Below, piece by piece: positions 17,438 to 63,960 of a stretch of 64,000 nt of DNA. The notes under the pieces are model-generated. The model saw nothing but the letters and a program-made list of their open reading frames with translations. It did no database searches and was not told the DNA's origin. This stretch comes from an uncultured Thermoproteales archaeon (lineage in GTDB: Archaea; Thermoproteota; Thermoprotei; Thermoproteales; Thermoproteaceae), in NCBI GenBank assembly GCA_938027595.1, contig CALJAK010000002.1, positions 124,001-188,000 of the forward strand, given 5' to 3'. The translations under genes and the position numbers were made by a program. Positions within the stretch are counted from its first letter, which is position 1, and each line of letters opens with the position of its first letter.

Positions 17438-17651
17438 TTTTCCCCACTGCGTAAGACTCGCCCACTTTCACAATTTCCACTTTTACTCTCTGCCCCACTT
17501 CTGCGTTTGGGACAAACACCACAAACCCGGCGACTTTCGCAACTCCATCACCCCTTCTAGACTTCTCCACAATTTCTACCTCCACTACGTCTCCCTCTTT
17601 GACTGGCTTCTGACCCCTCTTGCGCGGGGGTCCACCTCTTCTTTGATTCAT
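17424..17651 (-). CDS. TRAM-domain RNA-binding protein
   Basis: A 75-residue protein: a basic, Gly/Pro/Arg-rich N-terminus (residues 1-16) and one TRAM domain (VKEGDVVEVEIVEKSRRGDGVAKV ... VPNAEVGQRVKVEIVKVGESYAVGKI). Single-TRAM proteins of this size are abundant in archaea and are thought to bind RNA, acting like cold-shock chaperones. It overlaps the end of trpS tail to tail. A TTTATCG-like element lies about 26 nt upstream of the ATG. Confidence 0.92.
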   Translation of the reverse strand: MNQRRGGPPRKRGQKPVKEGDVVEVEIVEKSRRGDGVAKVAGFVVFVPNAEVGQRVKVEIVKVGESYAVGKITGV

Positions 17652-17711
17652 GAATCTGAGTTATCTACTATTCTCGATAAAGTTTTTAAAGTGATGCAAT
17701 AACGGCAGTGA

Positions 17712-17818
17712 GGGCCCGTAGCTCAGCCTGGTGGAGCGGCGGAAGAACGTCTGCCGAAGCTCTTAACCCGTAGGTCGTGGGAGGGGAAACCCCACGAATT
17801 CGAATCCCACCGGGCCCG
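17712..17818 (+). tRNA. tRNA-Lys(CUU) with two introns
   Basis: The acceptor GGGCCCG (17712-17718) pairs with CGGGCCC (17811-17817), with discriminator G at 17818 and a genomic CCA to 17821. Removing 16 nt (17743-17758, between positions 30 and 31) and 17 nt (17782-17798, between 53 and 54 in the T arm) gives a standard cloverleaf: D stem GCTC/GAGC, anticodon stem GCGGG/CCCGT, loop CTCTTAA with anticodon CTT at 17762-17764, T loop TTCGAAT. The introns are at non-canonical positions, as known in Thermoproteales. A TTTTTAAAG promoter element is centred about 26 nt upstream. Confidence 0.9.
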
Positions 17819-17835
17819 CCAGTTTTCTAAAGAGA

Positions 17836-17939
<104 letters not shown>

Positions 17940-23106: not shown

Positions 23107-23597
23107 CACTCTGTACGTGGCGTGATGTATTTTAAAAGTTCTGGCCTATTTTTAACGAGTTCTCTAGCTACTCTCGACGCAATTCTATCCACTAGAGACC
23201 TCCCCTCCGGCGTTAATACCCGCCCCTCTTTAGTCTTAGCCACGAGACCCGCTTGCTCCAATTGCTGCAGGAGTTTCCTAATTATTGCCCCTCCCGCTTT
23301 TCTAGTTCTCTCTCGCCTCGTCTTGTCGCCAATTTTCGCTCTATAACCATACATAATTCTGAGAGTTCCAACGCCCAGCGGTCCGTTTATATAGAGTTTC
23401 CTCATTAAAGAGGCTGCTCTGACGTACCACCAATCTGGAGAAAGTGGAGGTCTTTCCTTGTTTGCGCCAGTTTTCACAAAGGGAGTCCACACTGGCGGTT
23501 TGATTTGCGGAATGTCTCTCATGTATTTAGACAACTCCGCAATCAACACGTCGGCTGGCACGTCTTTTACTGACGTCACGCCAGTGATATAGACCAC
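23106..23597 (-). CDS. rps19e: Ribosomal protein S19e
   Basis: A 163-residue eS19 of the small-subunit head, needed for 3' maturation of small-subunit rRNA in eukaryotes. Signatures are [10 protein letters not shown] at the N-terminus, [43 protein letters not shown] and [15 protein letters not shown]. The GTG at 23597 is about 22 nt from an ATATATA element that also serves the divergent tfs gene. Confidence 0.96.
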
Positions 23598-23613
23598 CTA
23601 TATAAGCTTTAAA

Positions 23614-23623
23614 ACATATATAC
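23614..23623. promoter_or_regulatory. Shared bidirectional TATA element, S19e/TFS
   Basis: ACATATATAC is centred about 22 nt upstream of the S19e start (23597, minus) and 26 nt upstream of the TFS start (23644, plus). It is nearly its own reverse complement, so TBP could bind in either orientation. No second TATA element fits the spacing. Confidence 0.5.
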
Positions 23624-30288: not shown

Positions 30289-30822
30289 CTAACAAATATT
30301 GGCAACAACGCCGGTGTGGAGTGTGAACGACAACGCGTCAATTTCATCTTCTTCTAACTCTGGATACCGCCGCCTTAGCCACGGCCTAGACCAACTAGCC
30401 GTCAACTCGTCCACCAAACGCACCCCACGGCACTTTAGTAGAGAGGCGGCTCTCTTGACGTCTACATACGGCGAGGAGCCTATGTACACCTCCGCCGTGT
30501 TGGTGTTTTTCAAAATTTCCTCCACGGCTCCCCAGTCCAACACTGCGTGTAGTAGGGGGACACCTCCCCACACGTATACAATGCCGTTTTTGGAAGTTCC
30601 CAAATCCACTCCCAACTTCCCCCCACCCAGAATTCTGGGGATTTCGGTAAACAAAACTTGCGCCACGCAGCGGTAGTCTCTGCAGTCAATCACTACGTCC
30701 CCCCGTTCTCTAATGCCAGCGTCCACTAGCGTTATGTCGCCACGGTTGAAGAAGTCTACTCTAAACGTCACTCTCCTCACGTCTTCAAAGAGACTCCGCC
30801 TCCCCAAATACCCCAACTTCAA
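30289..30822 (-). CDS. RNase H-fold protein, RuvC/YqgF-like (predicted nuclease)
   Basis: A 177-residue protein with GVDLGTSKNGIVYV near residue 71 (first RNase H-fold strand with catalytic-type Asp), a second strand EVYIGSSPY near 111, and DEIDALSFTLH near 160, matching the C-terminal acidic helix D-x2-DA of RuvC-like enzymes. This combination suggests a Holliday-junction resolvase-like nuclease, though only three acidic positions could be aligned. The likely start is the TTG at 30822, about 25 nt from a TTTATAATT element. It is divergent from the DHH phosphoesterase gene. Confidence 0.55.
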   Translation of the reverse strand: MKLGYLGRRSLFEDVRRVTFRVDFFNRGDITLVDAGIRERGDVVIDCRDYRCVAQVLFTEIPRILGGGKLGVDLGTSKNGIVYVWGGVPLLHAVLDWGAVEEILKNTNTAEVYIGSSPYVDVKRAASLLKCRGVRLVDELTASWSRPWLRRRYPELEEDEIDALSFTLHTGVVANIC

Positions 30823-30862
30823 CGTATGTGAAAAATTGAAAAATTATAAACCTAAATTGTAC

Positions 30863-31780
30863 ATGCTGTTTAGAGTATTGGCGGCAAAAGCAGCGGGGAG
30901 ACCAGTGGCTTTGTGTGACGCAAATGACGTGGATGGCATTGCGTCAGCGGCGTTGTTCAAGAGACGTTACCGCAATGGCGTAGTGGTGCTCGCCGGCCCC
31001 ACAGATGTAAAAAAACTCTGGGTTAAGTTAATCCGTTGGGATTTTGTAGCAGACTTGCCATGTCCCGGCAGGGCAAGAGTGAGGGCAGACCACCACAAAA
31101 CGAACAAACCCTGCGCCGAGAGTGAATACTATGACCCAGAAGCTCCGGCGGCTGCGGTGTTGGCTGCAAAAGCGCTTGCGTTAGAGGGAGACCCCATAGC
31201 GGAACAACTGGTGGAGGCGGCCGTGCAGACAGACACAACTAACGTGGTGGATGAACGCGTTAGACTACTGGACTTAGCAGTTAGATATGCCACGATGGGA
31301 GAGAAGTTGAAAATTATCGACCTATTGGCCACCAAGGGCTTGGATGCCCTAGGGGAAGAGCCGTTGAAGAGCGCCGCGGCTAGGGGAGTTGATAGAGATG
31401 AGTTAGTTAAGAAAATAGTCAGCGCGATACCGGTGGGGGAGAGATTGTTCATCTACAGCCCCACCAAGCTCCACATTTCCTACCGCGCATTAGTGATTGA
31501 ATTAGAAAAGAGGGGGGCTAAGTTCGTCAACGTGTTAGTGAAGAGGGGGTGGAGGACGTATAGGCTGTACTGCGGGGCACATAGAGACAGCCCCTACGAC
31601 TGCACTAAGGTGGCTCAGCCGCTGGGTGGCGGTGGGCATAAATATGCCGCCGGCGCTACGGTGAAAGCGCCGCTCTTCAAATCGCCGTTATACACACTAG
31701 TGGAAATGTTAAAACCAGAAGTGGTGTACTCTCTGGGTGACTGCAGCCAGTTGCCAAACTGTGTAGAGATAAAGTGGTGA
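30863..31780 (+). CDS. DHH-family phosphoesterase
   Basis: A 305-residue DHH/DHHA1 enzyme. Motif I is CDANDVDGIASAALF (residues 18-32), the DHH motif is ADHHK (75-79), and the C-terminal DHHA1 site is GGGGHKYAAGA. Archaeal relatives include RecJ/GAN-like nucleases that associate with GINS and oligoribonuclease-like enzymes; which it is cannot be told. The ATG at 30863 is only about 16 nt from the TATA-like element, so a TTG at 30878 may be the true start. Its stop codon lies within box C of a candidate sRNA. Confidence 0.82.
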   Translation: MLFRVLAAKAAGRPVALCDANDVDGIASAALFKRRYRNGVVVLAGPTDVKKLWVKLIRWDFVADLPCPGRARVRADHHKTNKPCAESEYYDPEAPAAAVLAAKALALEGDPIAEQLVEAAVQTDTTNVVDERVRLLDLAVRYATMGEKLKIIDLLATKGLDALGEEPLKSAAARGVDRDELVKKIVSAIPVGERLFIYSPTKLHISYRALVIELEKRGAKFVNVLVKRGWRTYRLYCGAHRDSPYDCTKVAQPLGGGGHKYAAGATVKAPLFKSPLYTLVEMLKPEVVYSLGDCSQLPNCVEIKW

Positions 31781-36444: not shown

Positions 36445-36457
36445 GATATAAATAAAA
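36445..36457. promoter_or_regulatory. Shared TATA element, nitrilase-family gene/tRNA-Pro
   Basis: GATATAAATAAAA is centred about 20 nt from the nitrilase-family GTG (36431, minus) and about 23 nt from the 5' end of tRNA-Pro (36473, plus). The 41 nt between the two transcripts contain no other AT-rich element of that spacing. Confidence 0.45.
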
Positions 36458-36472
36458 GAAGTGATGGGGGTG

Positions 36473-36565
36473 GGGGCCGTAGTCTAGCCTGGCTAGGATG
36501 CCGGCCTGGGGCTGAGCCCCGCACCGGAGCGCCGGTGATCCCGGGTTCAAATCCCGGCGGCCCCA
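36473..36565 (+). tRNA. tRNA-Pro(GGG) with a canonical-position intron
   Basis: The acceptor GGGGCCG pairs with CGGCCCC (36558-36564), discriminator A at 36565. The anticodon stem is CCGGC/GCCGG, and an 18-nt intron at 36512-36529 sits between positions 37 and 38. The bulge-helix-bulge is clean: CTGG pairs with CCGG, flanked by GG|C and AG|C. Splicing gives loop CTGGGGC with anticodon GGG (36508-36510) and a 75-nt tRNA. No genomic CCA is present. Confidence 0.9.
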
Positions 36566-52466: not shown

Positions 52467-53134
52467 AGAAAAGACCCAGCGGCTGCCGCCAGTGGAATTG
52501 TGAGATTGTCCTCCACGCCGAAAACATCCGCCGCCATAACCAGTAGAGTTATCAAAAGCGACGCTAGTGGGGGGTAGCCAACTATAATCAACGCCAGCGC
52601 ATTCGCCACGCTGCCGGCCGCCGTGCCCCAGATAGTGACTCTCCCAAAAAGCCGTCTGCCACCCACTCCAACACCCACAATTGCACTAACTGCGTCATAC
52701 ACGATTAGACTGACGATAGCTGCGATGAAGTGAACCGGCCCGAAGAGCGTTATAGACGACAAAAACCCCAAAGCGCCCATCACAATGCCCAAGTAGCCGT
52801 GGCGTTTTTCGTAATCTCTCTCAGCTAGCGCTATGAATTCTTCAATTTGTTTTACAAATTTCTGGTACTGTAGTTCTGGCTTGTCTAGTGGGATAAAGCG
52901 ATCTAGCCTCTCTAATAATTCTTCTAGAGACTTGAGGAGGTTCTGCCTCACTTCATTCCATAGAGTTGGTTGTCTAACTTGTATAGAGTAGAGAAAGCCG
53001 CTTACCGCCGCTAGAGAGGCTATATATATATCTATGGGGATGTTGACAAAGAGGGGGATAGCTACCAGCGCCACAAATGTAATGTGGAAGATCTTCCTCG
53101 CGAGGAGTCTACGGAGCTCGCTAAGGTGAGACAT
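52451..53134 (-). CDS. CTP-dependent polyprenol/phytol kinase-like membrane protein
   Basis: A 227-residue membrane protein with six or seven hydrophobic segments. The N-terminal RKIFHI motif, a Asp-Ala...G-x-G-x-G site (YDAVSAIVGVGVGGRRLFGR, about residues 160-180) and a late DNLTIPLAAAAGS resemble dolichol, phytol and geranylgeraniol kinases. A role in recycling isoprenoid alcohols for lipids would fit the nearby geranylgeranyl reductase. The start is tentatively the ATG at 53134. The start overlaps the DUF371 gene by 14 bp, and the 3' end overlaps the PIN gene by 16 bp. Confidence 0.72.
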   Translation of the reverse strand: MSHLSELRRLLARKIFHITFVALVAIPLFVNIPIDIYIASLAAVSGFLYSIQVRQPTLWNEVRQNLLKSLEELLERLDRFIPLDKPELQYQKFVKQIEEFIALAERDYEKRHGYLGIVMGALGFLSSITLFGPVHFIAAIVSLIVYDAVSAIVGVGVGGRRLFGRVTIWGTAAGSVANALALIIVGYPPLASLLITLLVMAADVFGVEDNLTIPLAAAAGSFLYSLM

Positions 53135-53567
53135 AACCACTTGGACACACACCAATTGTAATCCTCACGGGGGCACCCCGCCTCAGCGCGGTCAACAACT
53201 CTCTCTTGAGGTCGGCGGCTGCTTTCTCAATCGAAATGGCGACTGTTGAGTCATCTACGTATGTGCTCTTCCTAGCCACAATCCGCCACATAGAGGTTGG
53301 GATTGCTAAGGGGGTAGACCCCACTACGTAGTCTTGTACAACGCCGGCGTCTATCACAATGACTACCTTACCCGGCTTTGTCAAATATTGAGAAATCTCT
53401 CCCAGCTCGCCGGCCGCTCTCTCAGAGCAACACGCCACTATGCAATCTCCCCTCTTGGTTACGTAGATGTCTTTAGTTATCTCTATAGTTCGTCTATTTT
53501 TCGCAGTTATGTTGGGGTGGCCTCTAGCTGTGAAAACCACGTGAGGTGACCGCCGGTTGAGAACCAT
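53121..53567 (-). CDS. DUF371 family protein
   Basis: A 148-residue protein matching the archaeal DUF371 pattern: [24 protein letters not shown], then [17 protein letters not shown]. The family is conserved in archaea without known function. I start at the ATG at 53567, about 24 nt from the shared TATA element at 53586-53596; an ATG at 53612 would lie on the far side of that element. Its 3' end overlaps the polyprenol-kinase-like gene. Confidence 0.82.
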
Positions 53568-53585
53568 GTCGACGCAAGACATGTC

Positions 53586-53596
53586 TTTATTTATAA
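53586..53596. promoter_or_regulatory. Shared TATA element, DUF371/tyrS
   Basis: TTTATTTATAA is centred about 24 nt from the DUF371 start (53567, minus) and 22 nt from the tyrS start (53613, plus). It reads as a TATA box on both strands and no other AT-rich element lies in the 45-nt gap. Confidence 0.55.
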
Positions 53597-53612
53597 GGTG
53601 ATTTTTCAACAT

Positions 53613-54728
53613 ATGGACGTAGAGACTCGGCTGTCTCTAGTCTTGCGGTACCCCACGGAGGAGGTAATTACAGTAGACGAATTGAGAGAGTTGTTCCAAG
53701 CGGGATACAGATTGAATCACTACATTGGGTTTGAGATAAGCGGTTTTATCCACGTTGGCACTGGAATTGTGAGCATGTCTAAAGTTGTGGATCTGCAGAA
53801 GGCAGGCGTGAAGACCACTATCTTCCTCGCCGACATACACTCGTGGCTTAACAACAAACTAGGTGGCGACCTAGATACCATTAGGAGAGTGGCGGTGACG
53901 TACTACAGGGAGACTTTTGGAAAGATTATTGAAACGTTAGGCGGCGATGTGAACAGCGTTGAGTTCGTCCTCGGGTCGGACCTCTACCACCACAATGACG
54001 AGTATTGGCTTCTCCTCATGGATTTAACTCGCCACCTCACGCTGTCGCAAGCTAAACACAGTTTGACAATTCTAGGTAGGAAAATGGGAGACTCAATACC
54101 GCTGGCTTATTTAATGTACCCCCCGCTGCAAGTGGCTGACGTTTTTGCGCTTGGGGCTCACATACCACACGGCGGTTTAGACCAGAGGAGAGCACATATT
54201 TTAGCTAGGCAAGTGGCCGACAGAGTCAAGTTCTACCCACTAACTGTGGGAGGTAAGCGAGTGAAACCTGTAGCTCTACATCACAAGTTGATCCCGGCGT
54301 TGAACATCACCACTAAGCCAAGCAGCAAAGAAGAGTTGAGCGAGTTGAAGATGTCTAAGAGTATCCCACAGAGCGCTATTTTTGTCCACGACGGTCCCGA
54401 AGAGATTAGGCAGAAGATATACAGAGCGTATTGCCCCCCGCGGGAGGTGGAGTACAACCCAGTGCTTGAGTTACTACACCTAACGTTTAGAGAAGAGAGA
54501 AAAACGCCGTTAGTAATTAGGCGGCTTGAGAAATACGGCGGCGATGTGGAAGTGTGGACTTTTGGAGAACTAGAGGCGCTCTATAGAGAGGGAAAAATCC
54601 ACCCGGCAGATTTGAAAAACGCAGCCGCCGAAGAATTGACGTCACTACTACTGCCAATATATCGCCACTTCCAGGGTCCGGGGGGGAAGTTGCTAGAAGA
54701 GATGAAAAACATTACGATTAGCCGTTAG
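53613..54728 (+). CDS. tyrS: Tyrosyl-tRNA synthetase
   Basis: A 371-residue class I synthetase of archaeal type. The tyrosine site is [15 protein letters not shown] (HIGH variant, about residues 37-51) and the KMSKS loop is [14 protein letters not shown] (about 252-265). The ATG at 53613 follows the shared TATA element by 22 nt; a GTG five codons earlier is possible. Its last 36 bp overlap the convergent reductase gene. Confidence 0.95.
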
Positions 54729-55760
54729 ATATTTTAAAAACTCCACGCCAGCCCTCACGGCTCTCACGTCGAGTAGAGCAGCCGACGCCAACGTCAGCAA
54801 ATGGTCGTCGTAATCTATCGCCACGTACTCTCCGCCGTCTAACGCCTCGAGCAGCTTATCCACCAGCCTCTGACCGTACAATACGCCAAACGCAGCGAAG
54901 GCCAGCCTCAACTTGAGTCTAGCGAGCCAAGTGGATCGCTCGTAATGCGCTGGGTCCCCCCTCTTCACGGCCTCAGCCGCAGCCACACCGCTGCGCATCG
55001 ACAAAACAATACCTCCACCGCTGAGTGGCTTCACTAAACCCGCCGCGTCTCCCAACAGCAGAACTCTGCCGTGTATCAATCTCTTCAAAGGCGGACCGGC
55101 GAGGACTCCCCCGCCGAACGGCTTGCCAACCGGCTTGCCTCTTATGTATTTCACTAGTTTATTCAATTTGTCCACCACGCCGTCGACGTCCACAAGTCCC
55201 ACTCTATAGAGCCCCCTGTCTAACTCCACGACCCAAGAGAAGTACGTCCGGGAAAACTTTGAGTTATAAATCACGTTGATGCTCTCCATGTCTACGTCGC
55301 TCTTTACGTCTACTTGAAGCCCCGGAAGTCTAACCACATGTCCAAACCTCCCAGAGAGTTTTCTAGAGGCGCCCTCAGCTATCGCTATGTAGTCGTAGGG
55401 ACCCCAGCGAGCTCCATCGAGACTGTACAAATACCCCCCTCTAACTTCACGTATCTTCTTGCCGAAGTTTATGTTGACAGACTCCGCCAACTTCTCCTCC
55501 AGCCCTGGTCTGTCTAATAGATAGACGCCACCCCTCACTTTGAAGTGTATCCACCTCTCGAGATTTGTGATTGTGAGACTGTCGTATTTGTTCAACACGA
55601 CGCTCTTCGGCACCAATCCCTCGGCAGATTTGGCACTAACGAGACTCGTGCAGTGCCGGGGGAGACCCACTTTTTCATGTTCTTCAAAGATGTCCACATC
55701 TCCAAGCCCAGCTGCGAACGACAACCCGGCGGGGCCGGCTCCCACGACTGCCACTCGCAC
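54693..55760 (-). CDS. Geranylgeranyl reductase family FAD protein
   Basis: A 355-residue flavoprotein of the GGR family, which saturates geranylgeranyl chains of archaeal lipids. It has the N-terminal FAD motif [21 protein letters not shown], an internal ATG-like motif and [22 protein letters not shown]. Other members reduce different isoprenoids, so the exact substrate is not certain. The GTG at 55760 is 23 nt from a shared TATA element. The 3' end overlaps tyrS by 36 bp. Confidence 0.88.
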
Positions 55761-55778
55761 AAAGACTGGGGGGTGGCC

Positions 55779-55787
55779 ATATAAATA
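55779..55787. promoter_or_regulatory. Shared TATA element, GGR/HD phosphohydrolase
   Basis: ATATAAATA is centred 23 nt from the reductase start (55760, minus) and 22 nt from the HD-domain gene start (55805, plus). Nothing else in the 44-nt gap fits promoter spacing. Confidence 0.55.
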
Positions 55788-55804: not shown

Positions 55805-57199
55805 ATGCAGTTTAAAAAAGCCATTAGAGACCCCATACACGGCTTTATCAAACTCACAGAGGAGGAAGTGAAATTCATAGACGGAGAGCCCCTCATACAG
55901 CGGCTTAGGTATGTGAAACAGTTGGGTTACGTGTATTTAGTCTACCCCACCGCCACACATACTCGATTCGACCACAGCCTGGGCGTGATGCAAGTGGCGC
56001 ACCTCATAGGCGAGAGGATAATGCAACAGAGGGGGGGTGTGGATGAACATTTGTTGAAACACTTACGCATGGCGGCGTTGTTGCACGACTTGGGCCACTT
56101 GCCATTTTCACACTCTTTCGAAACTTTGGCTAGAGAACTCCTCCACGTGGCGGCCGAGAGTAGATGTGTAGACGTAGACTTGGCGCTTTTCGACACAGAG
56201 AAGCCGCACGAGGTGACCACTAGGCTGTTGATGAATAACTTGGAGGGGCGATTAGTAGAGCTGGGATACAACCCAGAGGTGATTAAAGACATTCTGTCTG
56301 GGAGGGGGAAGTTGAGTTTCATATTATCCGGCGTGTTTGACGCAGATAGATTAGACTACATCATGCGCGACATGTACTTCACTGGCGCTGCTGTGGGCAC
56401 TAGCTTCACTTACATAGATCTAGAGAGGATTATAGAAAATTTGGAGGCGGTGGGGGAGGGGGTTCAGTTTAACGAAAAGGCGAGAGTAAATCTAGAGGGG
56501 TACTTACTCACTCGGTACAATCTATATAGACATGTATATCTCCACCACAAGACTGTGTTGTTCACCGAAGTGGCGCGTCAGATTATGGCTAGAAACATAG
56601 CTAAATGTAAAGACGACTCTGGAGATAGAGAGATATGTAGATATCTATGTGACTTGGCGAAGTTCATGACCGGCGCGGTTGAGAGCGTGTGGAAAGCCAC
56701 AGATGACTACTTTAACTCCATATTCCTCAGAGACGCTAGCTACCGAGATCTCCTGGGGCGGAAGACGTTGAACTTCATAACTTTTTGGAAGAGAGAAAAA
56801 GACTTTCTAGAAGTCTTCAAAGACCCAGCGCGTGTGAATCAATCTATCGATAAGTTGAGCCACTGGGCGTTGATAGACCGGCTAAAGAGAGAGCTAACCG
56901 AGACACTCAACTTGGGGTTGAGCAAATGTAGACTCTCGCCAGACGACTTGATAATATCCCGCGCCAGCTTCGACCCCCACGTGGAGGACCTCCATATATC
57001 CACATCTATGGGTCCCATCTCCATCTCCACAATATCGCCGCTAGTGGAAGCTATAAACGAAGCTTGGAAGAGAGCACCTCACGTGTTTCTATACATAAGG
57101 CGCGACGTTGTGGAGAAGTGTGGAGAAGAAGTAATCACCGGCTTGAAGAGAGTGCTAGAGCCACTTCTAGATCTGGCAGTGAGGAAAATCACTCAGTGA
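55805..57199 (+). CDS. HD-domain phosphohydrolase (SAMHD1/dGTPase-like)
   Basis: A 464-residue protein of the HD superfamily. It starts IRDPIHGFIKLTEEE, then THTRFDHSLGVMQVAH (first metal His), ALLHDLGHLPFSHSFE (HD motif, about residues 97-112) and DADRLDYIMRDMY with the distal Asp. This layout matches archaeal dNTP triphosphohydrolases related to SAMHD1. Controlling dNTP pools is a plausible role. The ATG is 22 nt from a shared TATA element. The 3' end overlaps the next minus-strand gene by 11 bp. Confidence 0.88.
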   Translation: MQFKKAIRDPIHGFIKLTEEEVKFIDGEPLIQRLRYVKQLGYVYLVYPTATHTRFDHSLGVMQVAHLIGERIMQQRGGVDEHLLKHLRMAALLHDLGHLPFSHSFETLARELLHVAAESRCVDVDLALFDTEKPHEVTTRLLMNNLEGRLVELGYNPEVIKDILSGRGKLSFILSGVFDADRLDYIMRDMYFTGAAVGTSFTYIDLERIIENLEAVGEGVQFNEKARVNLEGYLLTRYNLYRHVYLHHKTVLFTEVARQIMARNIAKCKDDSGDREICRYLCDLAKFMTGAVESVWKATDDYFNSIFLRDASYRDLLGRKTLNFITFWKREKDFLEVFKDPARVNQSIDKLSHWALIDRLKRELTETLNLGLSKCRLSPDDLIISRASFDPHVEDLHISTSMGPISISTISPLVEAINEAWKRAPHVFLYIRRDVVEKCGEEVITGLKRVLEPLLDLAVRKITQ

Positions 57200-58370: not shown

Positions 58371-59419
58371 GTCTTTGGATATTTATTCAAAACGACAGCC
58401 CCGCCGTCTATGTACACCATGTCTTCTATACGTACGCCACCCACCCCCTCTATGTACACCCCAGGCTCTATAGTCACCACTTGCCCACGCTTTAGGACCT
58501 CCTTAGAGGTGGCGAAGAGCCGCGGCGGTTCGTGTACCTCCACCCCCACGCCGTGGCCAGTGGAGTGGATGAAGTACTCTCCATAGCCATACTCAGACAA
58601 CACTTCCCGCGCAGTTTTATCCACCTCGGCGGCTGGCACTCCATCGCCAACTCTCTTCTCAGCCGCTTTCACAGCTTCATAAACTGCATACATGGCGTCT
58701 CTGAGTGCGGTAGATTGTCCAAACGCCAGAGTCCTCGTCATGTCTGAGCAATAAACTCCCCTCTTGGCTCCGGCGTCTATCACTACATAATCGCCGTAGG
58801 TTATCTCTCTATCTCCAAATTTGTAGTGTGGATATGCGCCGTTTGGCCCAGACGCCACTATGGGGTCGAAAGCGACGCCGTCTGCTCCGTACTCTATAAA
58901 CCATTTGTATATCAACGCCGCCACGTCTCGCTCTCTCATGCCGACGAGTTTAACGTCGCTGAGGGAGACATACGCTCTCTCAGTGATTTCCAGCGCTCTC
59001 TTCATGACTTCCAACTCCCATTCGCTCTTCACAGATCTCAACTCTAGTATTTCCCCACGTACATCTACCCCCAGCTCCTTATTATCCGAAGCTACAGAGC
59101 CCTCCAGCTTCTTGACTATATCGACAAACGGCGTTGTTACCAACTCCTCGCCACGCCTCCGTGGTGGTATTTCTGCCGTAGACACGCCAATCACTTTATC
59201 CACGGCAGTTGTGGACTTAGCTCTGGCGTAGTCAAGTCTAGACACGTAGAGAGTGGAGTAGCCAGTGGAGAGCTCCACCACGAGACCCAAAGCGTCTGGC
59301 ATACCCACTGCATACGCCAAGTTTGGCCCCGTGGTTAGAACTAAAAAGTCGAATTTCTTGGAGAAAGCATTTACCAATCTCTTCAAGTTATCCATGTCTA
59401 ATGGAAATTGGATTTTCAT
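58355..59419 (-). CDS. Xaa-Pro dipeptidase/aminopeptidase (M24 family)
   Basis: A 354-residue M24 metallopeptidase. Metal ligands are Asp in VVIDAGAKRG, Asp in CSDMTRT, His in HSTGHGVGVEVHE, Glu in VTIEPGVY and Glu in VRIEDMVY, all present. The N-terminal 125 residues form the creatinase-like domain of prolidases. It removes N-terminal residues before proline or splits X-Pro dipeptides. The start (59419, or an ATG at 59395) overlaps the ASCH gene. Confidence 0.92.
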   Translation of the reverse strand: MKIQFPLDMDNLKRLVNAFSKKFDFLVLTTGPNLAYAVGMPDALGLVVELSTGYSTLYVSRLDYARAKSTTAVDKVIGVSTAEIPPRRRGEELVTTPFVDIVKKLEGSVASDNKELGVDVRGEILELRSVKSEWELEVMKRALEITERAYVSLSDVKLVGMRERDVAALIYKWFIEYGADGVAFDPIVASGPNGAYPHYKFGDREITYGDYVVIDAGAKRGVYCSDMTRTLAFGQSTALRDAMYAVYEAVKAAEKRVGDGVPAAEVDKTAREVLSEYGYGEYFIHSTGHGVGVEVHEPPRLFATSKEVLKRGQVVTIEPGVYIEGVGGVRIEDMVYIDGGAVVLNKYPKTYFLA

Positions 59420-59744
59420 ATTTTTTCAACACCGTAAAGTGTATCACTGTCACTAACTCTCCCTCGCCTAAATCTCCATACAGATTCCTCAACGTCTGTA
59501 TCAACTCCTCTCTAGAGTTAAATCCCTCCGCATGTACAATGTCGCTAGTTATCTCGCCCAGCTTGACGTAGTGAACTCTATGTATGAAAGCCTCGGCGTA
59601 TATATATCCACAACACGTGAGATACACTCTGGCGAACTTAGGTCTCACTACTCCACGTCTCACAGTCACATGTTTAGACCCCTCTATCACTTTCTCTATG
59701 TATGTCTTCGCGAAGTTTAGATAGGGCCCCAGCTCTCTAACCAT
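59388..59744 (-). CDS. ASCH-domain protein
   Basis: A 118-residue protein with an ASCH/PUA-like fold: LGPYLNFAKTYIEKVIEGSKHVTVRRG, ARVYLTC, and VKLGEITSDIVHAEGFNSREEL, the arrangement of archaeal ASCH domains thought to bind RNA. I begin at the ATG at 59744, about 19-23 nt from the shared AT-rich element. Its end overlaps the M24 gene start by up to 32 bp. Confidence 0.8.
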   Translation of the reverse strand: MVRELGPYLNFAKTYIEKVIEGSKHVTVRRGVVRPKFARVYLTCCGYIYAEAFIHRVHYVKLGEITSDIVHAEGFNSREELIQTLRNLYGDLGEGELVTVIHFTVLKKYENPISIRHG

Positions 59745-60261: not shown

Positions 60262-60590
60262 TACTCCTCGCCTTACAGCTGGCGGTGTTGGTTATAGCCA
60301 TGTACCTAGGCCGTGGCAGATTGAAGAAGTTGATGAATAACACACAGAAAACTGCAGAAATAGACTCGAGCGACATGCACGACGTTGACAAAGCCATTTT
60401 GAAATTTATAGAGGACAGACAGGGAATGGTGTACCAGAGTGAAATTGTGAAAGAAATGGGTCTCCCCAAGAGCACCGTACACAAAGCTCTAAGGCGGTTA
60501 GCCGAGGGGGGGTACGTGGAGATGCAAAAGAGGGGGAGGTTTAACGTAATTATCTTGAAGAGAACTACTTTAGAACCTTCAACAACTTAA
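60255..60590 (+). CDS. Membrane-anchored winged-helix protein
   Basis: A 111-residue protein: one membrane helix (residues 1-18, LILLALQLAVLVIAMYLG), a short linker, then a winged helix-turn-helix (about 43-105; DKAILKFIEDRQGMVYQSEIVKEMGLPKSTVHKALRRLAEGGYVEMQKRGR). The recognition helix KSTVHKALRRL is clear. Such proteins in archaea may regulate transcription from the membrane. It overlaps the gene before it by 7 bp and the convergent gene after it by 26 bp. Confidence 0.8.
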   Translation: MLILLALQLAVLVIAMYLGRGRLKKLMNNTQKTAEIDSSDMHDVDKAILKFIEDRQGMVYQSEIVKEMGLPKSTVHKALRRLAEGGYVEMQKRGRFNVIILKRTTLEPSTT

Positions 60591-60984
60591 CCTCGCCATA
60601 TTTCTTAAACAAATCTATCAAGAGGGGGATTGGGTCGTCGTCCAGTGTTTTGTACCCAGCGAGCTTCACGCCGCCCTCCACTACTCTCATAAACCCACCT
60701 CCAGTCCTTATAGTCACCTCCCCCGGTCCGAACACAATTTTGAACTGCCTCTTGGCGAGACAGAGTCTCTCAACTACCTCGCCGGCGAGAATCAACTGCT
60801 CTTTCTTGGGTTTAGCTCTGGGTTTTCTCTTCTTCAACTCGCTCAAGTCCTCGCTGGCGAAATCCCCCTTCACGATACCTCTTACTTTGTCCACAATGAC
60901 GAAATCCCCGTCGTATCCCAACACTTCAATATTTTCGCCGTTTTTAACCTTAGCCACCACATCCCCCACGGTGTGTTTCTCCAC
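60565..60984 (-). CDS. Hypothetical basic protein
   Basis: A 139-residue protein with a beta-rich first half (GDVVAKVKNGENIEVLGYDGDFVIVDKVRGIVKGDF), a Lys/Arg/Pro linker (KKRKPRAKPKKE) and another alpha/beta part. No family is recognised; the first half could be an OB- or KOW-like barrel. The GTG at 60984 is about 20 nt from a shared AT-rich element. It overlaps the HTH gene 3' end by 26 bp. Confidence 0.55.
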   Translation of the reverse strand: MEKHTVGDVVAKVKNGENIEVLGYDGDFVIVDKVRGIVKGDFASEDLSELKKRKPRAKPKKEQLILAGEVVERLCLAKRQFKIVFGPGEVTIRTGGGFMRVVEGGVKLAGYKTLDDDPIPLLIDLFKKYGEVKLLKVLK

Positions 60985-60999
60985 AAAAATGAAAATTCT

Positions 61000-61010
61000 T
61001 AAAAATAAAT
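61000..61010. promoter_or_regulatory. Shared TATA element, hypothetical gene/zinc-ribbon gene
   Basis: TAAAAATAAAT is centred about 20 nt from each of the starts at 60984 (minus) and 61024 (plus), midway in a 39-nt gap. Confidence 0.45.
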
Positions 61011-61023
61011 ACGTTTAAGAATC

Positions 61024-61188
61024 GTGGATTTGGGAGATAACTTAATTAAGTGCCCCTCTTGCGGTAGAGACATGCATGTAGTGAGTCAATTCCAACGTAT
61101 TGAACAATTCACTGGAAGGAAAATTCTAGAGAAGTCGTTAGTGTGTAAAGTGTGCAATATAAAAATAAAACAATACATCCAGATATGA
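61024..61188 (+). CDS. Small zinc-ribbon protein (short gene)
   Basis: A 54-residue protein with two C-x2-C knuckles (Cys 10, 13 and 41, 44: CPSCG and CKVC) 27 residues apart and a Lys-rich end, a zinc ribbon of unknown role. The GTG at 61024 is about 20 nt from the shared AT-rich element. Its stop overlaps the ATG of the next membrane-protein gene (ATGA), which supports it as a translated gene. Confidence 0.65.
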   Translation: MDLGDNLIKCPSCGRDMHVVSQFQRIEQFTGRKILEKSLVCKVCNIKIKQYIQI

Positions 61189-63090: not shown

Positions 63091-63275
63091 CCAAGTGGAT
63101 TCTAAAATGCATGACGTGCGGCGAGGAGAGAATTTTTGAAGCGGGGTTTAACCTCACGATTTTCGGCAGCAAGATCTACCTATACTGCAAAAAATGCAAA
63201 GCCAACAGAGACCAATTGATAATGGGCTGCGTAGACGACACTTGCCCCACTGTGAAAGTTGACGTAATTGACTAA
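63087..63275 (+). CDS. Small zinc-ribbon protein coupled to the ATP-grasp gene
   Basis: A 62-residue protein with C-x2-C at 8-11 and 34-37 (CMTCG, CKKC) and two later Cys (48, 53). It might be a carrier or partner of the ATP-grasp ligase, as LysW is for LysX, but it lacks the acidic EDWGE C-terminus of LysW. It overlaps the ligase by 4 bp and the convergent coiled-coil gene by 4 bp. Confidence 0.7.
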   Translation: MTKWILKCMTCGEERIFEAGFNLTIFGSKIYLYCKKCKANRDQLIMGCVDDTCPTVKVDVID

Positions 63276-63931
63276 CAGATAATTTTAAGTTGAATAACGC
63301 TGCTAGTCGTCAAGTGATACAAAGCGTTGACGTTGCTTAGAGTACTCAAAATCTTCTCCAACTCCTCCATCTCGCCGTTTTCAAGCTTGTCTAGTAAACG
63401 CTTAGCCTCGAGTCTCTCCCGCTTCTTCTCCAACTCTACCTTTAGTTGTGTGAGAGATTGATTCAGAGACATGATGCTCCTCTCCACGTCGGAGCATGCA
63501 GATTTTAGCCTCCTCTCTCTCTCTTGCAGCCTCCTCACCTGTTCGTTGTACACATCCATTCCAATAATTCCCTTCACTAAAGCCTCCTCTAACTTGCCAT
63601 ATGAGCGATTCAACTCACTCCTGGCCTTCCTCAACTCCTCCACGACTTTATTCACTTCTCTCGCTTTGATTTCGAAAAATCTAGGCAGAGCAGACACGTC
63701 TAAGTCTACGTATTCTCTAGTTATCTTCACTCTGATGTTTGAAGTGTCTATGTAGTGAGATTGGCCGTGCCCATCTTTCACCTCTATGGAGATGAGTTTC
63801 TTTCTAGCCATGTCAAATTCTCCTTTTTCAGCTATGCCAATCAACAACACTCCCCCTATGTATACACTCTTCCCCCTGACTGTGGGGACCTTCACCTCTT
63901 CCTTCGTTCTCGCAGAAAACAACCACTTCAC
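63272..63931 (-). CDS. PRC-barrel-like/coiled-coil protein
   Basis: A 219-residue protein. Residues 12-75 form a beta-barrel-like part (VRGKSVYIGGVLLIGIAEKGEF ... KLISIEVKDGHGQSHYID), resembling PRC barrels; residues 85-195 are a long coiled coil rich in Glu, Arg, Lys and Leu. This is the domain order of the crenarchaeal division protein CdvA, but Thermoproteales are usually said to lack the Cdv system, so this is only a fold resemblance. The GTG at 63931 is 24 nt from an AT-rich element shared with the plus-strand gene. Confidence 0.6.
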   Translation of the reverse strand: MKWLFSARTKEEVKVPTVRGKSVYIGGVLLIGIAEKGEFDMARKKLISIEVKDGHGQSHYIDTSNIRVKITREYVDLDVSALPRFFEIKAREVNKVVEELRKARSELNRSYGKLEEALVKGIIGMDVYNEQVRRLQERERRLKSACSDVERSIMSLNQSLTQLKVELEKKRERLEAKRLLDKLENGEMEELEKILSTLSNVNALYHLTTSSVIQLKIIC

Positions 63932-63950
63932 GCCATTTCTAGATGAGTTT

Positions 63951-63960
63951 GTTAAAAATC
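63951..63960. promoter_or_regulatory. Shared TATA element at the right edge
   Basis: GTTAAAAATC is centred 24 nt from the coiled-coil gene start (63931, minus) and 27 nt from the ATG at 63982 (plus), the seventh such arrangement in the window. Confidence 0.45.

What the first reader, a model, noticed from the sequence alone, without database searches (positions are those of the whole stretch)
53567..53613. Divergent genes sharing one symmetric TATA element (seven cases)
DUF371/tyrS illustrates the pattern: starts are 45 nt apart and a single TTTATTTATAA sits 22-24 nt from both. The same geometry occurs at 23597/23644, 36431/36473 (tRNA), 55760/55805, 59744/59785, 60984/61024 and 63931/63982, with gaps of 39-50 nt. 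TBP can bind one site for only one direction at a time, so paired genes would compete in a switch-like way. The frequency within 64 kb suggests a preferred genome design.
Basis: partly seen in the sequence, partly recalled or inferred. Interest (0 to 1): 0.62.

Follow-up and report, generated by a model that had tools for sequence, protein, structure and literature searches.

The report
Divergent genes sharing one TATA box
In this heat-loving archaeon, several pairs of genes that point away from each other are packed so tightly that one short promoter element very probably starts both; this is real but is a compact form of a two-way promoter already described in archaea, and nothing shows that it works as a switch.

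Summary
The window is from a Pyrobaculum-like archaeon. Promoters of its non-divergent genes have a TATA box centred 23 nt before the start codon and a BRE (the TFB-binding element) about 7 nt further upstream, the leaderless pattern. At that fixed spacing, any divergent pair whose starts lie 39-50 nt apart must share or overlap its TATA box. The finding is therefore mostly correct. Four of the seven cases hold well (53567, 55760, 59744 and 60984). The tRNA case is plausible but not conserved. 23597/23644 is wrong: the S19e start is 23579, with two separate TATA boxes here and in relatives. 63931/63982 is weak. A clear case at 30822/30863 was missed.

With starts set by homology alone, 20 of 185 divergent pairs have gaps of 39-50, only mildly above neighbouring bins; 18 of those 20 carry a usable promoter in both directions. 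The sharp peak from promoter-informed start calls is partly circular, as a decoy test showed. Spacing is conserved in some pairs and lost in others, and partners look unrelated. Best explanation: genome compaction onto one near-palindromic TBP site, used in either direction according to TFB/BRE. Such promoters are known from Pyrococcus furiosus. The switch claim is unsupported.

The parts
53587..53597 (.). shared AT tract TTTATTTATAA, candidate two-way TATA box between DUF371 gene and tyrS
   Evidence: sequence; promoter scores both directions about P=0.02
53121..53567 (-). DUF371 protein gene, start 53567
   Evidence: Pfam PF04027 E=2.7e-34; homologues align from residue 2 onwards
53613..54728 (+). 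tyrosyl-tRNA synthetase gene
   Evidence: PF00579; Met1 conserved in relatives
55777..55787 (.). single TATA tract CATATAAATA between geranylgeranyl-reductase-like gene and HD-domain gene, gap 44, centres coincide
   Evidence: gap 38-53 in 10 of 13 relatives
54693..55760 (-). geranylgeranyl reductase-like flavoprotein gene (below TIGR02032 cut-off)
55805..57199 (+). HD-domain protein gene
   Evidence: PF01966, PF19276
59757..59769 (.). single tract TTTTAAATTTTTA between ASCH-domain gene and unknown gene, gap 40
   Evidence: AAACCTTTAAATTTTTA-like element with gap 40-45 in 10 of 14 relatives
59388..59744 (-). ASCH-domain protein gene
   Evidence: PF04266
59785..60261 (+). unknown conserved gene
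   Evidence: homologues found divergent to the ASCH gene in relatives
61000..61012 (.). overlapping TATA sites (CTTAAAAATAAATAC), gap 39
   Evidence: gap 39-41 in 9 Pyrobaculum relatives
60565..60984 (-). unknown conserved gene
61024..61188 (+). small zinc-ribbon protein gene (54 aa)
   Evidence: weak Zn_ribbon_9 and ZPR1 matches; homologues in relatives
36446..36456 (.). overlapping TATA sites between carbon-nitrogen hydrolase gene and tRNA-Pro, gap 41
   Evidence: arrangement not seen in relatives
36473..36565 (+). tRNA-Pro(TGG)
   Evidence: gap 40-45 in 13 of 17 relatives with homology-defined starts
23598..23606 (-). TATA box of ribosomal protein S19e (start 23579): NOT shared
   Evidence: score 7.1; two separate TATA boxes in relatives
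23615..23622 (+). TATA box of TFS (TFIIS-like) gene (start 23644): separate from the S19e box
63949..63958 (.). weak candidate shared TATA (63931/63982, gap 50)
   Evidence: scores about P=0.04; relatives mostly have two boxes

Best explanation
These are compact two-way promoters. In this leaderless archaeon the TATA box sits at a fixed 23 nt from the start codon, and the box itself is nearly palindromic. When two divergent genes are pushed to 39-50 nt apart, one AT-rich tract serves both: TBP binds it in either orientation, and TFB bound to a BRE on one side or the other sets the direction for that round. The arrangement is most likely the tightest packing that keeps both promoters outside the coding regions, reached by compaction, kept in some gene pairs and lost in others. 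Shown here: spacing, promoter scores in both directions, conservation and turnover. Inferred: actual initiation in both directions, TFB/BRE orientation, absence of regulatory coupling.
For: Promoter profile of 154 starts called without promoter information: A+T peak at -26 to -20, AA at -31/-30, pyrimidine at -1. A matrix from non-divergent genes reads BRE-AA then TTTATAAA at a sharp spacing in four genomes. With homology-only starts, 18 of 20 pairs with gap 39-50 have both promoters at or above threshold, against 59% per side for tandem genes, usually on a single AT tract. The TATA part read backwards scores nearly as well in ordinary promoters (4.35) as in shared ones (4.85), and the backward BRE part is better at shared sites (start choice biases). 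Spacing is retained in relatives for 30822/30863 (13 of 17), 59744/59785 (10 of 14), 55760/55805 (10 of 13) and 60984/61024 (9 Pyrobaculum relatives) while the sequence around it changes. The same mechanism was shown in Pyrococcus furiosus, including in vitro, with start sites 49 nt apart (PMC6640164).
Against: No transcript data for this organism. BRE signal on the second side is weak (p=0.02 in the less biased comparison). At gaps of 39-41 the two TATA centres are 4-8 bp apart, so those are overlapping sites rather than one identical site. Some start codons remain uncertain.
Confidence: 0.72

Rival explanations
1. Regulatory coupling: the shared TBP site makes the two genes mutually exclusive, a switch maintained by selection.
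For: Physical exclusion follows from overlap of the two TATA sites; spacing is conserved across two genera for some pairs.
Against: Partners look unrelated; orthologous pairs alternate between shared and separate TATA boxes (DUF371/tyrS gaps run from 30 to 147); basal firing in E. coli is too low for competition (PMC12825309).
Confidence: 0.07
2. Two independent promoters whose TATA boxes overlap by chance because compact genomes have short intergenic gaps; no special use of a symmetric element.
For: The gap distribution is a broad hump with only a mild mode at 40-49; some cases have TATA centres 4-8 bp apart.
Against: Both-sided promoters in 18 of 20 pairs at 39-50, against about 57% of other divergent pairs; many examples have a single AT tract only.
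Confidence: 0.13
3. Only one of the two genes uses the site; the other starts elsewhere, with a leader or an internal start codon.
For: Two separate boxes, with a misplaced start, were found at 23597/23644; start codons of short unknown genes are uncertain.
Against: Homology-defined starts give the same geometry for most other cases.
Confidence: 0.08

Closest known systems
Bidirectional BRE-TATA-BRE promoters of Pyrococcus furiosus (PMC6640164)
   Same: One TATA element read in both directions, start sites about 50 nt apart, TBP symmetric and direction set by TFB/BRE; antisense enrichment at -50 also seen for head-to-head genes.
   Different: There the second product is mostly a non-coding antisense RNA and transcripts are not predominantly leaderless; here both products are genes and the spacing is measured between start codons of probably leaderless genes.
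Prokaryotic bidirectional promoters caused by DNA symmetry (Warman et al. 2021, cited in PMC12825309; the original could not be read here)
   Same: Divergent transcription from one pseudo-symmetric element.
   Different: In E. coli the common start-site spacings are 10, 18 and 23 bp, built around -10 elements.
Leaderless transcripts of Pyrobaculum aerophilum (Slupska et al. 2001, cited in PMC4983044)
   Same: Start codon at the transcription start, so TATA spacing from the codon is fixed.
   Different: As cited, it concerns leaderless transcripts in general, not divergent pairs (original not read).

Membership tests
archaeal bidirectional promoter (single TATA, two directions) | one TATA element at promoter distance from both start sites | tested here: met
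   four window cases plus 30822/30863, with the start codon used as proxy for the start site
archaeal bidirectional promoter (single TATA, two directions) | BRE on both sides of the TATA | tested here: inconclusive
   second-side BRE score higher than in controls but weak
archaeal bidirectional promoter (single TATA, two directions) | transcripts detected in both directions about 50 nt apart | not testable with these tools
   no RNA data
leaderless promoter architecture | TATA and BRE at fixed distance from the start codon | tested here: met
   centre -23, AA at -31/-30, pyrimidine at -1
mutually exclusive regulatory switch | output of one gene falls when the other rises | not testable with these tools
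   needs expression measurements

The most novel reading that the evidence does not exclude
In Thermoproteaceae the shared TATA at 39-50 nt is itself selected, for example to fix the expression ratio of two housekeeping genes, so the spacing is held over long times while the sequence changes, as at 30822/30863.
Probability: 0.1. Interest if true: 0.6.

Novelty: new member of a known kind. Interest (0 to 1): 0.3.

Why it matters
It extends two-way archaeal promoters from antisense by-products to pairs of genes in a leaderless lineage, and gives a list of conserved pairs on which TBP/TFB orientation and promoter competition can be tested. It also warns that start calling with promoter signals manufactures the very distance peak one wants to test.

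Tried and rejected
A sharp spike at gap 45 from promoter-informed start calls (p about 1e-7) was rejected as proof: a decoy run with the motif forced to wrong offsets made comparable spikes at gaps of about 66 and 83, because the partner's near-palindromic TATA is read backwards and start choice is pulled. It was replaced by homology-only starts. The samples of two more distant relatives (G015, G045) were too small to say anything. Warman 2021 and Wurtzel 2010 are not held. My notebook entry giving 14 of 17 relatives for 30822/30863 is a miscount; the output gives 13 of 17.

Full report
Setting. The window lies in a 1.24 Mb draft genome. Its relatives (18 others in the family, 44 others in the order) include genomes with the sizes of Pyrobaculum aerophilum, Pyrobaculum neutrophilum and Thermoproteus tenax (species recognised from genome length, from my own knowledge). 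Genes were called with a script of my own (hexamer model, no promoter information), because no annotation is available.

Promoter architecture. Aligning 154 starts called without promoter information shows A+T-rich positions -26 to -20, AA at -31/-30 and a pyrimidine at -1. A matrix fitted only on non-divergent genes gives BRE-AA followed by TTTATAAA, with the same sharp position in own, G027, G031 and G041. The TATA centre is therefore 23 nt before the start codon, the leaderless pattern known for P. aerophilum (Slupska 2001, as cited in PMC4983044). Two such promoters facing away from each other have coincident TATA centres when the gap is about 45 nt; between about 39 and 51 nt the boxes must overlap.

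The seven cases. Promoter scores for both directions were compared with random positions. 55760/55805 has coincident centres on a single CATATAAATA. 53567/53613, 59744/59785 and 60984/61024 have one AT tract with the two best sites 4-6 bp apart. 36431/36473 (tRNA-Pro) is similar, but no divergent tRNA-Pro is found next to the homologous hydrolase gene in relatives. 23597/23644 fails: homologues, the S19e profile and the promoter place the S19e start at 23579, and both here and in relatives two separate TATA boxes serve S19e and TFS. 63931/63982 has weak scores, and 11 of 15 relatives have two boxes 15-29 bp apart. A further case, 30822/30863, was missed; its gap is 40-45 in 13 of 17 relatives with starts fixed by homology.

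Is the distance preferred? Promoter-informed starts gave a striking spike at 45 nt. A decoy run with the motif required at -54 or -70 produced spikes at about 66 and 83 nt, so the procedure manufactures peaks: the partner's TATA, nearly palindromic, is read backwards and the start is pulled to fit. With homology-only starts, 185 divergent pairs from eight genomes form a broad hump from 20 to 80 nt with a mild mode at 40-49; 20 pairs fall in 39-50, against 13 and 11 in the flanking bins and 17 in 63-74. The preference is therefore weak and not established. Seven cases in 64 kb are not exceptional for this genome: the promoter-informed caller put 18 of 69 divergent pairs at 38-52 nt in 329 kb and it misses some short genes; that count carries the bias just described.

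Is the site really two-way? In the 20 pairs at 39-50 nt with promoter-free starts, 18 have a usable promoter on both sides (95% of sides, against 59% in tandem genes), commonly on one AT tract. Ordinary promoters read backwards already have a good TATA; what they lack is the second BRE. This matches P. furiosus, where the same TATA gives transcripts in both directions about 50 nt apart, confirmed in vitro at PF1918, with a weaker second BRE (PMC6640164).

Evolution. For DUF371/tyrS the gap is 40-46 in seven relatives but ranges from 30 to 147 overall. For 55760/55805 and 59744/59785 it is 38-53 and 40-45 in most relatives, with exceptions up to 108 and 210. The divergent pairing is thus kept where the shared box is not. 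Partners (TyrRS and DUF371 protein, HD-domain protein and reductase, ASCH protein and an unknown) suggest no common regulation.

Verdict. The geometry is real and mostly correctly described. The mechanism is best read as compaction onto one reversible TBP site. Competition is possible in principle, but the direct study available, in E. coli, found none at basal rates and some under strong activation (PMC12825309). It is a new instance of a known kind.

Noticed in passing
30822-30863: Divergent pair (conserved unknown protein with a TTG start / DHH-type phosphoesterase-like protein) with gap 40, held at 40-45 nt in 13 of 17 relatives; the best conserved shared-TATA candidate in the window.
   Followed up: yes
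17595-17939: ARAGORN reports a tmRNA here, but Rfam finds a tRNA at 17838-17939 on the same strand; the tmRNA call is probably false and the tRNA probably carries an intron.
   Followed up: no
63272-63931: Coiled-coil protein next to a uracil-DNA glycosylase gene; it looks like CdvA (from memory), but families give only weak SMC and THOC7 matches.
   Followed up: no
window, promoter profile: Start-aligned profile has an extra A-rich position at -14 as well as the pyrimidine at -1; the -14 signal is unexplained.
   Followed up: no
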